Of a stretch of DNA of 36,999 nt, positions 199-3,735 are shown one piece after another (positions within the stretch are counted from its first letter, which is position 1; every line of letters begins with the position of its first letter). This stretch comes from Parcubacteria group bacterium ADurb.Bin115 (GTDB taxonomy: Bacteria; Patescibacteriota; Patescibacteriia; Patescibacteriales; UBA12465). The notes beneath the pieces are model-generated. The model was not told the DNA's origin. It was given only the letters and a program-made list of their open reading frames with translations, and made no database searches. Location: NCBI GenBank assembly GCA_002070735.1, contig MWDX01000024.1:1-36999 (forward strand), read 5' to 3'. A program made the translations under genes and the position numbers.

Positions 199-408
199 AT
201 GGATAACCGAAGAAAAGAACAAATCGCGCTTCTGCTCATCAAGCATCAACTCCGTGAAAAAGGAATCCGACTCACGCCAAATTTCAGGCGAGGGATCGGA
301 AACGAAGCCAATAGTATTGGCATCCCTGTTGATGAAGCCATGGAATTCGCGGAAATCATCGTCCGCGAGCTGGTCGAGGAAACATTTGCGAAGAAGTCCG
401 AAGCGTAG
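199..408 (+). CDS. Small conserved-looking hypothetical protein (69 aa)
   Basis: The protein is a charged, mostly helical 69-residue polypeptide without signal peptide or membrane segment. It starts MDNRRKEQIALLL and its middle part reads PNFRRGIGNEANSIGI. The ATG at 199 follows a good promoter at 98-126 but has no Shine-Dalgarno sequence. The composition (R, E, K rich with regular hydrophobics, VDEAMEFAEIIVREL) looks like a genuine folded protein. I do not recognise a characterised family. A chain of hairpins ending in a terminator at 525-563 follows it. An overlapping frame beginning near 98 is less protein-like and was not called. Confidence 0.65.
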   Translation: MDNRRKEQIALLLIKHQLREKGIRLTPNFRRGIGNEANSIGIPVDEAMEFAEIIVRELVEETFAKKSEA

Positions 409-419
409 TTCCTGAACAA

Positions 420-524
420 TAGGGTGAACTCAGTGAGTTCCTAAACGGGTAATTGTACCTCTCTCCAAAACGGAGAAGTTGGGCAGAATAAGAACCGCCC
501 CCCCTTGTTCCAAAGGAACACAAC
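420..524 (+). other. Chain of small hairpins downstream of the 69-aa gene
   Basis: After the stop codon at 408 come several short inverted repeats: gaact/agttc, tctcc/ggaga around an aaaac loop, gggc/gccc, and tgttcc/ggaaca around an aaa loop. The terminator at 525-563 follows. No convincing reading frame spans this part. It may be a structured 3' UTR or a processed RNA; I do not recognise a known family. Confidence 0.4.
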
Positions 525-563
525 GAGCGCATCATTCTCACAAGTGGTGCGCTCTATTTTTTT
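525..563 (+). terminator. Intrinsic terminator
   Basis: gagcgcatca at 525-534 pairs with tggtgcgctc at 545-554 (10 base pairs, one G-U). Seven T follow at 557-563. It ends the transcript of the 69-aa gene. Confidence 0.85.
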
Positions 564-566
564 CTC

Positions 567-596
567 TGGAACTAAAAACAAAAAAACTGATATACT
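567..596 (+). promoter_or_regulatory. Possible promoter of the structured RNA
   Basis: TATACT at 591-596 is a good -10 box. A weak -35 candidate, TGGAAC, lies 18 bases upstream at 567-572. It sits just after a terminator and just before a structured, non-coding stretch, so a separate transcript starting near 603 is plausible. Confidence 0.4.
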
Positions 597-602
597 AAAA
601 TC

Positions 603-766
603 ACAATTAAATAAGAAAAAGACCTAACCCTTTTAAGCAATTAAGAAGCACGGTCAAAAGTCGAGTTAAGCATAAAAACCCATCAGGGGGTCGCTTAACT
701 CGCCATATCGGGAAACCGGTATGAGAGACTTCGGTCTCTACTCGTAGTGGGCTTTTTGTGTAAAGT
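603..766 (+). ncRNA. Candidate structured non-coding RNA of unknown family
   Basis: Three hairpins follow each other without a reading frame. The first has a perfect 10-base-pair stem, cgagttaagc (about 661-670) with gcttaactcg. The second is an 8-base-pair stem, catatcgg/ccggtatg, capped by a GAAA tetraloop. The third is a 6-base-pair stem, agagac/gtctct, capped by a TTCG tetraloop. The loop of hairpin 1 contains aaaaaccca, which can pair with tgggcttttt near 748-757, either as a pseudoknot or as an alternative terminator. An upstream gacc...ggtc pair (about 630-655) may close a further domain. Two stable tetraloop caps in AT-rich DNA argue for selection on RNA structure. It does not match the tRNA, SRP RNA, tmRNA or RNase P signatures I know. 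Ends are approximate. Confidence 0.55.
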
Positions 767-825
767 CGAAAACAAAACTAACTACGGGGGTAAAATTATA
801 AACCCTTTTATTAACTTAAAATTTT

Positions 826-1048
826 ATGGAAAATCAAAAATAAAAGACAAAAAGAAGTTTTATAAACGCTAGTGGTTTTGGACGCTCGCAGTTTTAATCA
901 TTTTTATCGTTATTGGCTCAAGTGGAAATAAGCCGGAAAAAGTCGGACAAAATACTACAAACAGCGAAGCATCAACGAAAACAGAAAGCCAAACATTCAA
1001 AGTCGGAGTAAAAATGGATGGCTCAATCATCACGTTGAACAAAGTCCT
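826..1048 (+). pseudogene. Remnant of a membrane-anchored (DUF4352-like) protein
   Basis: Read in one frame from ATG 826, the sequence gives MENQK-stop-KTKKKFYKR-stop-WFW, then a hydrophobic anchor TLAVLIIFIVIG, a polar linker rich in T, S, E and K, and QTFKVG...TLNKV. A short lysine-rich tail, WWFW-type membrane start, linker and small beta domain is typical of DUF4352-like exported proteins (inference from pattern). There are two in-frame stops (TAA at codon 6; TAG, probably from TGG, at codon 16). The homology ends abruptly near 1048, where the sequence switches to a gene on the other strand. The gene is dead and truncated. Confidence 0.6.
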
Positions 1049-1289
1049 GGTTATTATTTGCCCCAAAGAATACACAAAAGCAACTTCGTCTGCCTGTTTG
1101 ATTTTACCTTCGCCCTTAGTTTCTATAAAATAATAAATCGGGTATTGATTAGCTTTAATATCAACTCCTTTTTCTCGTAAACCGCCGAATTGGAGATGAC
1201 CCCAGTTATTTACTGATAGCCATTTTATAATAGAATTTTTTATAGTCTTCTGATAAAATTTTAACTTTTTTATCTTTATTTTTTAGCAT
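1049..1289 (-). pseudogene. Remnant of a PD-(D/E)XK-type nuclease-like protein
   Basis: On the minus strand from ATG 1289 the frame runs through KVKILSEDYKK. A one-base shift near 1235 is then needed to continue with IIKWLSVNNWGHLQFG, GVDIKANQYPIYYFIETKGE and QADEVAFVYSLGQIITR. The last part stops at about 1049, where the other remnant begins. GVDI followed about 14 residues later by IETK fits the D...ExK core of PD-(D/E)XK nucleases (family inference). It is truncated at its C terminus and frameshifted. It lies next to an intact restriction system but is a different protein from that endonuclease. Confidence 0.6.
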
Positions 1290-1379: not shown

Positions 1380-2834
1380 ATGACACAGCAAACTCAAAAA
1401 CAACTAGGTGCTTTTTATACCCCCATCCATACGGTTAAATATATGGTTGAAAAGTTAACCAATTTTGATAAAAGCAGTAAATTATTGGAACCGAGCGGAG
1501 GCGACGGTGCTTTTGTTTCGGTTATTTTAAAAAATAAGTTGTTAAAACCTGACCAGATAACGGTTTGGGACATAAATCCGGAAGTCAAAAATGGTTTAAA
1601 CGAACTTGGCCTAAAAAATGTTGTCATTAAAGACACTCTTTTAAATACTGATATCGCCAATGATTCTCTTTTTGGTTGCGAGCAATTTTCACATATAATC
1701 GGGAACCCCCCTTATTTGAATAAGCAAAGCGATTATATTAAAAAAAATAAGCACAAATTAGGTAATATTTTTAATGAAATTGGGGCTAATGATACTTATG
1801 CGATGTTTTTGTATTTGGGTTGTAAATTACTAAAAGAGAATGGACAACTTTGTTTTATTGTCAGCGATACTTATTTAACTTTAGGCATACACAAAAAGTT
1901 AAGAAAATTTTTATTGAAAAATTACACCGTTAATGAGATAACGCTATGTTCTAAAAAATTATTTAGAGATAGAGGGGCATTGGTTAATACTAGTATTATT
2001 TTAATAACTAATAAAAAAGCGACGGATGATCATGTTGTCATTTTTAACGATTGCCGAGATAATGAAATTGATGATTATAATGGCAAAAAATATAAAACTA
2101 TTCAAAAAAATATTTTATCGTATCCGGATTATGTGTTTGATTTTAATGGCGGGGCTAAATTATTAGGTAAAATCAACGAGTTTGAAAAAATGATTAATTA
2201 TTTGGATGGCGGATTAGGAATGCATACAACTAACAATCGTAAATTTTTAGCTATTGCTGATTATAACGGTGTCCAATATGCTAAAAATAATGGGATAACA
2301 GAACGGGTTAATATCAAAAATATTGATGGGAAAAAATGGAAATTTTATCATAAAAAGGGAGGTAATAATAAATATTATTGGCCGGCTGAATATGCTATAA
2401 GATGGGATCAAGAATCGGTGTCTAATTATAAAATGCCTAGCCATTATAATTTGAATGATGACAGACAGGGTTTTATCATTTCCGGTGTTTGTTCTAACTT
2501 GACCGCAAGATTATCAACGGTTGGAGCTCTTTGGGAAAGTAATAAGGCAATGTGCTTTTTCCCCAAAAACCCCAAAAAATATCCGCCGGAATTCTTTGTC
2601 GGAATTTTGAATAGTGAGGTTTATAATAAGATGATCAAATTATTAAATCATACTAATTCTATTCAAATTAGGGATATAAAAAAATTACCAATGCCCAGTT
2701 TTACTGATAAAGATATTAAAGCCGTTGTTGAGATTTCAAAAAATATAATAAAAAATTTAAAGCATGATTTTAGCTACAATTTTAATCAGGATCAAGAACA
2801 AATTAATAAAATTGTTGGAGCCTATTTTAGCTAA
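1380..2834 (+). CDS. Adenine-specific DNA methyltransferase (Eco57I/TaqI-like)
   Basis: The modification enzyme of a type II restriction system, transferring a methyl group from SAM to adenine N6 in a specific DNA site. Visible motifs: GAFYTP (residues 10-15, motif X typical of gamma-class N6-adenine methyltransferases), LEPSGGDGAF (36-45, SAM-binding motif I) and IGNPPY (107-112, catalytic motif IV). The C-terminal half should carry the target-recognition domain; the length (484 aa) suits the TaqI/Eco57I-like family. A TATAAT lies just upstream and no Shine-Dalgarno is present. The endonuclease gene starts one base after the stop codon. The gene is clearly more AT-rich than the core genes to the right, which suggests horizontal transfer. 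The recognition site cannot be read from the sequence. Confidence 0.88.
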   Translation: MTQQTQKQLGAFYTPIHTVKYMVEKLTNFDKSSKLLEPSGGDGAFVSVILKNKLLKPDQITVWDINPEVKNGLNELGLKNVVIKDTLLNTDIANDSLFGCEQFSHIIGNPPYLNKQSDYIKKNKHKLGNIFNEIGANDTYAMFLYLGCKLLKENGQLCFIVSDTYLTLGIHKKLRKFLLKNYTVNEITLCSKKLFRDRGALVNTSIILITNKKATDDHVVIFNDCRDNEIDDYNGKKYKTIQKNILSYPDYVFDFNGGAKLLGKINEFEKMINYLDGGLGMHTTNNRKFLAIADYNGVQYAKNNGITERVNIKNIDGKKWKFYHKKGGNNKYYWPAEYAIRWDQESVSNYKMPSHYNLNDDRQGFIISGVCSNLTARLSTVGALWESNKAMCFFPKNPKKYPPEFFVGILNSEVYNKMIKLLNHTNSIQIRDIKKLPMPSFTDKDIKAVVEISKNIIKNLKHDFSYNFNQDQEQINKIVGAYFS

Positions 2835-2835
2835 T

Positions 2836-3735
2836 ATGAAAAAAGGTAATAAAGAAAAATCAAACCGAGCACAGGCCGATTATTTTGAGCTGTTAGTCTG
2901 TCAGTATATTTGCCATCTTTATAAAATAACTTTTTCTTATAGCGAAGATTTAGCCAAGTTATCTAATAAAATTTTAGACAAAGAAGATGGTAAAGAAAGA
3001 ATGAGATTGCAAAATAATAATTTTATAAAAATTCAGCCGGGAATTAAAAAAATATTGGATGACGAAATAAGCAGAAAAGGCAAAATTATAAATGTTGTTT
3101 GGACTGGCCGTCATTTTGTTATTGAGCAATCAACGTCGGATGTTGATGCCGAGCATTCAAGTAATAAGAAAACCAGGTTTTCTATAAAATCAATTGCTAA
3201 GTCGGGCACAGGAACATTAAAAAATCTTGGCTTAGGAAAATTGGAAAAATGGTTTAGTTTTAGTTTTAAGAATCAAACTGATAAAATGTGGCGGGATCTT
3301 AAAAATTATATTCGTCAGACAACTGGCAAGAATACTTCAAAAAGAGGGGAATTGAAAAAAATAGCACAGAAAAATAAAAAAATTTTGGAATGGGCAAAAA
3401 GAAATGGAAAGATTTTTCAAGCCCGATTAAATAGTGTGTGTTTAGAAAAATTTAACTCTTTGCCGCCAAAACAAAAAAGAGAGTTTTTAAATTTTATTAC
3501 CGACTGCCACGACGAAGATTTATATGTGGTTATCGTTAATAATTCCGGTGTAGCTATTTATAAGCCGGTTGATAAAACGGCCAAACCAAAAGACAGAATC
3601 ATAGCGAAAAAAGAAAATGGATCAGATGTTGGGTATACGATTTATATTAATAAAATTCCGACATATAGAGCTCAGACTAATAATACTAATGGGATAGGAA
3701 TTAGCGCTTTTTGTCAGAGAATATTCTTGATTTAA
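2836..3735 (+). CDS. Putative type II restriction endonuclease (family unrecognised)
   Basis: The 299-residue protein is called an endonuclease mainly because it directly follows the methyltransferase (one-base gap) in the same AT-rich block. I chose ATG 2836; an upstream in-frame ATG at 2764 lies inside the methyltransferase. Residues 99-118 read STSDVDAEH...RFSIKS, a possible PD-(D/E)XK variant with D102 or D104 and S116-x-K118 in place of ExK, as in several restriction enzymes with SxK cores. The N terminus (RAQADYFELLVCQYI) resembles the helix that opens many such folds. The C-terminal third is lysine-rich beta/alpha. No signal peptide or membrane segment. The assignment is contextual and the fold is inferred. 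Confidence 0.7.
   Translation: MKKGNKEKSNRAQADYFELLVCQYICHLYKITFSYSEDLAKLSNKILDKEDGKERMRLQNNNFIKIQPGIKKILDDEISRKGKIINVVWTGRHFVIEQSTSDVDAEHSSNKKTRFSIKSIAKSGTGTLKNLGLGKLEKWFSFSFKNQTDKMWRDLKNYIRQTTGKNTSKRGELKKIAQKNKKILEWAKRNGKIFQARLNSVCLEKFNSLPPKQKREFLNFITDCHDEDLYVVIVNNSGVAIYKPVDKTAKPKDRIIAKKENGSDVGYTIYINKIPTYRAQTNNTNGIGISAFCQRIFLI

What the first reader, a model, noticed from the sequence alone, without database searches (positions are those of the whole stretch)
603..766. Candidate new structured RNA with three capped hairpins and a loop-tail pairing
Seen: a 10-bp stem, then an 8-bp stem closed by a GAAA tetraloop, then a 6-bp stem closed by a TTCG tetraloop, between a terminator and a pseudogene, with a TATACT box upstream. 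The loop of the first hairpin (aaaaaccca) can pair with the 3' tail (tgggcttttt), so a pseudoknot or a switch between pseudoknot and terminator is possible. No family I know fits. Such economical tetraloops in AT-rich, non-coding DNA suggest selection for structure.
Basis: partly seen in the sequence, partly recalled or inferred. Interest (0 to 1): 0.65.

Follow-up and report, generated by a model that had tools for sequence, protein, structure and literature searches.

The report
LOOT RNA, likely a gene-control leader
The folded RNA is real but not new: it is a copy of the known, functionally orphan LOOT RNA of ultra-small bacteria, and comparing nearly 300 copies suggests that LOOT is a control switch in front of genes (one arm of its main hairpin is often copied right before the next gene's start codon), although this particular copy sits in front of a broken gene.

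Summary
The described hairpins are real, but the RNA is not a new family. Window 621-739 is a full-length match to Rfam RF03000, LOOT RNA: 78.3 bits against a cut-off of 46.4. It is the only copy in a 758-kb, Patescibacteria-type genome.
The tail T lies just outside the Rfam model. Across 285 LOOT loci in three sets, T pairs with its own P2 loop far better than with other loci's loops. In the window copy this pairing has two mismatches and is not significant alone.
A second feature emerged. In 57 of 285 loci (about 0.2 expected) the P2 5' arm, X, recurs as an exact copy of 9 nt or more just upstream of the next gene's ATG. Copies in one genome carry different X, and each matches its own leader. 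LOOT sits at the 5' end of the unit, a median 56 nt before a same-strand start codon.
I propose that LOOT is a cis-acting leader that switches between a pseudoknot (start codon free) and a fold in which the P2 3' arm covers the start region. Rfam files it as an sRNA; I found no published function. The window copy lacks X'' and precedes a broken DUF4352-type gene, so it may be a relic.

The parts
525..562 (+). intrinsic-terminator-like hairpin plus T run of the upstream unit
   Evidence: 12-pair stem 525-554 followed by TATTTTTTTC
591..596 (+). -10-like box TATACT
   Evidence: sequence; over 205 LOOT loci TATAAT-like hexamers peak about 22-27 nt before the LOOT 5' end; here -30. The sigma-70 scan found no paired -35/-10 at this site
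621..739 (+). LOOT RNA (Rfam RF03000), full length 1-121
   Evidence: 78.3 bits, gathering 46.4, E 2.8e-13
621..655 (+). P1 domain: GACC/GGTC with inner hairpin 629-648; conserved CCUAACC subtype
   Evidence: alignment; subtypes
660..671 (+). P2 5' arm (X)
672..692 (+). P2 loop (L) with the AAAAACCCATCA segment that pairs with tail T
   Evidence: in this copy two mismatches, not significant alone
693..704 (+). P2 3' arm (X')
704..723 (+). P3 hairpin, GAAA tetraloop
724..739 (+). P4 hairpin, TTCG tetraloop
741..757 (+). tail T (CTCGTAGTGGGCTTTTT), outside the Rfam model; pairs with the P2 loop across the family
781..786 (+). possible L'' (ACTACG) complementary to CGTAGT of T; inferred, weak in this copy
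   Evidence: family-level T:L'' signal
826..1055 (+). degraded DUF4352-type membrane-protein gene: early stop and frame change after the ATG, an in-frame TAG in the membrane segment, lost 3' end
   Evidence: translation; resembles the intact genes downstream of LOOT in L098, L233 and L241; L098 is PF11611 DUF4352

Best explanation
The element is a LOOT RNA (RF03000) at the 5' end of its transcript, and LOOT RNAs are most likely cis-acting translational leaders. State A: the P2 arms X and X' pair and the P2 loop L pairs with the tail T, a pseudoknot that leaves the start region of the next gene free. State B: T pairs with a segment L'' just downstream and X' pairs with X'', a copy of X that ends 0-7 nt before the ATG, so that ribosome binding is blocked. 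An unknown signal (metabolite, protein or temperature) would choose between them. Shown: family identity, loop-tail pairing, X'' copies at start codons, leader position, near-equal energies of A (pseudoknot not counted) and B. Inferred: that the switch operates, its direction and its trigger. The window copy keeps the RNA but has no X'' and its gene is broken, so it is probably a relic or has lost its output.
For: LOOT identity. Leader position: 168/190 loci have an ATG-started ORF of 60 aa or more starting 22-140 nt downstream on the same strand, against 53/190 for the mirrored upstream side; median distance 56 nt; -10-like boxes peak just upstream. Loop-tail pairing, own versus swapped between loci, score >= 20: 91% v 19%, 67% v 18%, 99% v 40%; it also holds within loop subtypes. 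X'' of 9 nt or more: 27/118 v 0.12 expected, 5/87 v 0.06, 25/80 v 0.03; absent further downstream, upstream, and for X'. X'' ends within 6 nt of an ATG in 84% v 24% of random positions. In genome G358, 5 of 7 copies with different X each match their own leader; G038 3 of 3. Homologous downstream genes carry different X, with X'' changed to match: L060/L099; type III methyltransferases L055/L066/L110. T has a competing downstream partner (45 loci v 13 expected). States A and B differ by 0.8 kcal/mol on average over 30 loci, pseudoknot not counted.
Against: About 80% of loci have no detectable X'', so it is not universal (more frequent in the CCUAACC subtype). No ligand, protein partner or transcript is known. 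Downstream genes are very diverse, giving no hint of a signal. Rfam types LOOT as 'Gene; sRNA'. The window copy has no X'', only a weak loop-tail pairing, and a broken gene. Energies ignore pseudoknots and co-transcriptional folding.
Confidence: 0.66

Rival explanations
1. LOOT is a free-standing small RNA (Rfam's type): it is transcribed, ends at the U-run after T, and acts in trans by base pairing, with X' as the seed.
For: Rfam type 'Gene; sRNA'; U-rich run after T in nearly all copies; an own -10-like box; most copies lack X'' in cis.
Against: Where a target is visible it lies directly downstream in cis, and copies in one genome are mutually specific. The window's X has no other exact match in its genome, and its one-mismatch matches are not just upstream of an ATG. 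L069's X has no second exact match in G358, and its one-mismatch match is 12 nt from an ATG. The same-strand start 35-80 nt downstream is unexpected for a free sRNA.
Confidence: 0.17
2. LOOT is a transcription attenuator: the loop-tail helix followed by the U-run ends transcription, and pairing of T with L'' lets it read through.
For: A G/C-rich L-T helix is followed by U-rich sequence; T has a competing partner L''.
Against: The U-run is often interrupted (UUUGUGU) and pairs with the loop's A-rich side. It does not explain why X is copied exactly before the start codon. It could still work alongside translational control.
Confidence: 0.1
3. The X copies reflect a DNA process (insertion with target duplication, gene conversion, or mobile LOOT-gene cassettes) rather than RNA regulation.
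For: LOOT precedes accessory genes such as DNA methyltransferases; patchy distribution; the two tandem LOOT-ORF units in G112 carry paralogous small ORFs.
Against: X' changes together with X and X'' although it lies inside the repeat-flanked segment; X'' keeps a fixed place next to the ATG; the tail-loop pairing co-varies independently.
Confidence: 0.05

Closest known systems
LOOT RNA (Rfam RF03000)
   Same: Full-length CM match at 78.3 bits; P1, P2, P3 and P4 with tetraloops; CCUAA and GGN(C/U)AUGG-type core; host of the same kind as the other LOOT carriers (candidate phyla radiation).
   Different: The loop-tail pseudoknot and the X'' copy at the start codon, described here for the family, lie outside the Rfam model. 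In this copy X'' is absent, L-T is imperfect, and the downstream gene is broken.
Riboswitches and ribosomal-protein leaders with translational expression platforms
   Same: 5' position, mutually exclusive helices, occlusion of the start region, different regulated genes in one genome.
   Different: No ligand or binding partner known. The switching strand is a near-perfect private copy of an arm of the RNA's own core hairpin, different at each locus, not a shared anti-Shine-Dalgarno; leaders with X'' mostly lack a Shine-Dalgarno (1 of 30).
Loop-tail (H-type) pseudoknots of small bacterial riboswitches
   Same: A hairpin loop pairs with the 3' tail.
   Different: Here the pairing is long (about 12-18 bp), also has a competing downstream partner, and is hosted by a four-helix RNA of unknown function.

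Membership tests
LOOT RNA (RF03000) | Covariance-model score above the curated gathering threshold over the full model | tested here: met
   78.3 bits against 46.4, model 1-121
LOOT RNA (RF03000) | P1, P2, P3 and P4 helices | tested here: met
   all four helices present in the alignment and in the MFE fold
LOOT RNA (RF03000) | Occurs in the expected hosts | tested here: met
   83 of 380 genomes of the same phylum carry it, none of 14 control genomes; named genome matches are nearly all candidate-phyla bacteria
LOOT RNA (RF03000) | Is transcribed | not testable with these tools
   no transcriptome data; only a -10-like box
cis-acting translational switch (works-like claim) | Fixed leader position before a same-strand gene | tested here: met
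   168/190 against 53/190 mirrored; in the window the gene is present but broken
cis-acting translational switch (works-like claim) | Alternative helix that covers the start codon region | tested here: inconclusive
   met in 57 of 285 loci; not found in the window copy
Riboswitch | Ligand-binding aptamer | not testable with these tools
   needs in-line probing or SHAPE with candidate ligands
trans-acting antisense sRNA | Complementary target near a start codon elsewhere in the genome | tested here: not met
   for the window's X: no second exact hit; the two one-mismatch hits examined are not just upstream of an ATG; two-mismatch hits not examined

The most novel reading that the evidence does not exclude
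LOOT RNAs are a widespread class of self-addressed RNA switches in candidate-phyla bacteria. Each copy carries a private 'address' arm duplicated at the start codon of its own gene, so that one conserved pseudoknotted sensor can control many unrelated accessory genes (DNA methyltransferases, surface proteins, DUF4352 proteins) independently in one small genome. The sensed signal is unknown.
Probability: 0.5. Interest if true: 0.75.

Novelty: new member of a known kind. Interest (0 to 1): 0.52.

Why it matters
LOOT is an Rfam family without a known function, present in about a fifth of the genomes sampled in this phylum. If it is a leader switch, it would be one of the most common regulatory RNAs in bacteria that are nearly all uncultivated. 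It would also suggest an expression-control part for organisms that lack inducible systems (a need stated in PMC11665869), and a search for its ligand or protein becomes a concrete experiment.

Tried and rejected
A new RNA family: rejected by the Rfam match. A trans target of the window's X: only itself matches exactly, and the two one-mismatch hits examined are not just upstream of an ATG; the single one-mismatch hit of L069's X in G358 is 12 nt from an ATG and was not followed. A hidden X'' in the other loci by X'-leader duplex energy: only 7 of 81 loci without X'' in the top 5%, about chance. A shared function of the downstream genes: 47 Pfam families over 98 proteins, the commonest in only 6. 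Shine-Dalgarno avoidance with X'': a trend only (1/30 v 24/140, p = 0.08). The original LOOT paper (Weinberg et al. 2017, from memory) is not held, so whether it mentions the pseudoknot or gene context could not be checked. The held papers that name LOOT give only covariation remarks and a family figure.

Full report
OBSERVATION. The stems described are in the sequence at the stated place: a 10-bp stem 662-671/693-702, an 8-bp stem with GAAA at 704-723, and a 6-bp stem with TTCG at 724-739. The segment folds better than all 200 dinucleotide shuffles (z = -4.26).

IDENTITY. A scan of Rfam 15 gives one match here: RF03000 LOOT RNA, 621-739 +, positions 1-121 of 121, 78.3 bits against a gathering score of 46.4. 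So it is not a new family. It is the only copy in the 758-kb genome. LOOT occurs in 83 of 380 genomes sampled from the phylum and in none of 14 control genomes; in 21 of 111 genomes of the window's order; and in 79 of 197 of another order. Named genome contigs found by a core pattern are nearly all candidate-phyla-radiation bacteria. I therefore take the host to be one of these; the genome itself is unnamed.

TAIL AND PSEUDOKNOT. I collected 121 LOOT copies plus the window copy with flanks. Directly after the Rfam 3' boundary lies a tail T (typically GCUGGCGGGGAGCUUUUUGU) complementary to the P2 loop. Scored against tails swapped between loci, own pairs are much better: 91% v 19% reach the threshold, with replication in two further sets (67% v 18%; 99% v 40%) and within loop subtypes. 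In the window copy T and loop pair with two mismatches, and 14-19% of swaps score as well.

COPY OF X AT THE START CODON. The 5' arm of P2 (X) is very variable, yet it recurs downstream, next to the ATG of the following gene. Exact copies of 9 nt or more within +15..+120: 27/118 loci (expected 0.12 from swaps), 5/87 (0.06), 25/80 (0.03); together 57/285. There is no excess further downstream or upstream, nor for sense copies of X'. X'' ends a few nucleotides before the ATG (27 of 32 within 6 nt, against 24% of random positions; 0-7 nt with one exception among the 27 copies of 8 nt or more in the third set). In G358, five of seven copies with different X each match their own leader; in G038 three of three do. 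Homologous downstream proteins carry different X, with X'' changed to match, for example L060/L099 and the methyltransferases L055, L066 and L110 (families). X'' is commoner with the CCUAACC core (20/57 v 15/140, Fisher p = 1.4e-4; 19/37 v 4/39). The window copy has the CCUAACC core but no X''.

LEADER POSITION. 168 of 190 loci have an ORF start 22-140 nt downstream on the same strand, against 53 of 190 on the mirrored upstream side; the median distance is 56 nt. TATAAT-like hexamers peak about 22-27 nt before LOOT, so LOOT appears to sit at the 5' end of the transcript (inference).

COMPETING STATES. T also pairs with a segment L'' downstream in many loci (45 v 13 expected at score 18 or more). 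State A (X-X' plus L-T) and state B (T-L'' plus X'-X'') are mutually exclusive, and without counting the pseudoknot they differ by 0.8 kcal/mol on average in 30 X''-positive loci. I infer a switch between a pseudoknot with a free start codon and a fold that covers the start region. Direction and trigger are inferred, not shown.

THE WINDOW COPY. Downstream is a broken gene that resembles the intact DUF4352-type genes behind LOOT in L098, L233 and L241. There is a stop and frame change just after its ATG (826), an in-frame TAG in the membrane segment, and no 3' part. With no X'' and a weak L-T, this copy may be decaying together with its gene.

LITERATURE. Rfam 14 shows LOOT as an example of a metagenome-derived family (PMC7779021). 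Rfam 15 added two covarying pairs (PMC11701678). CaCoFold reports 28 'cross-covariations' in LOOT (PMC7657543). I read these as possibly reflecting the locus-specific P2 arm (inference). No held paper gives a function. The original description is not held.

LIMITS. Swaps between loci control for composition but not fully for phylogeny. The P2 arms were called by a simple stem search. The second set was found with a pattern that requires the CCUAAAC core, which lowers its X'' rate. Pseudoknot energies were not computed.

Noticed in passing
window 406-566: A second strongly folded stretch just upstream (MFE -57.9 kcal/mol, z = -5.8, 0 of 200 shuffles as good), ending in the terminator; no Rfam match and no DNA relative in 111 genomes of the order.
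   Followed up: partly
window 1380-3735: Eco57I-like N6 DNA methyltransferase (PF07669, PF02384) followed by an overlapping 323-aa ORF without a Pfam match, perhaps a restriction partner.
   Followed up: partly
L075 (G112 contig C3, 17612-18107): Two LOOT-ORF units in tandem, the LOOT starts 376 nt apart, with paralogous small proteins (MPKFKIDFWFDQEP.. and MPKYKIDIWFDQKP..).
   Followed up: partly
L252, L253: LOOT RNAs on two IMG/VR contigs, upstream of a secreted-protein-like gene and a zinc-ribbon gene; virus, or misclassified host DNA.
   Followed up: no
L190, L232, L236: LOOT matches in bins named Gastranaerophilales, Lentisphaerae and Omnitrophica; binning contamination or real transfer not resolved.
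   Followed up: no
all LOOT loci: X''-positive loci include several DNA methyltransferases (D12, N6/N4, C5), while many LOOT genes encode zinc-ribbon membrane proteins, SNase-like proteins or small surface proteins.
   Followed up: partly
L060, L072, L082, L086, L114, L320; L033, L035, L037, L295, L332: The variable arm X is not random: themes such as CGATCAAGC and CCGACCAAG recur in different genomes.
   Followed up: no
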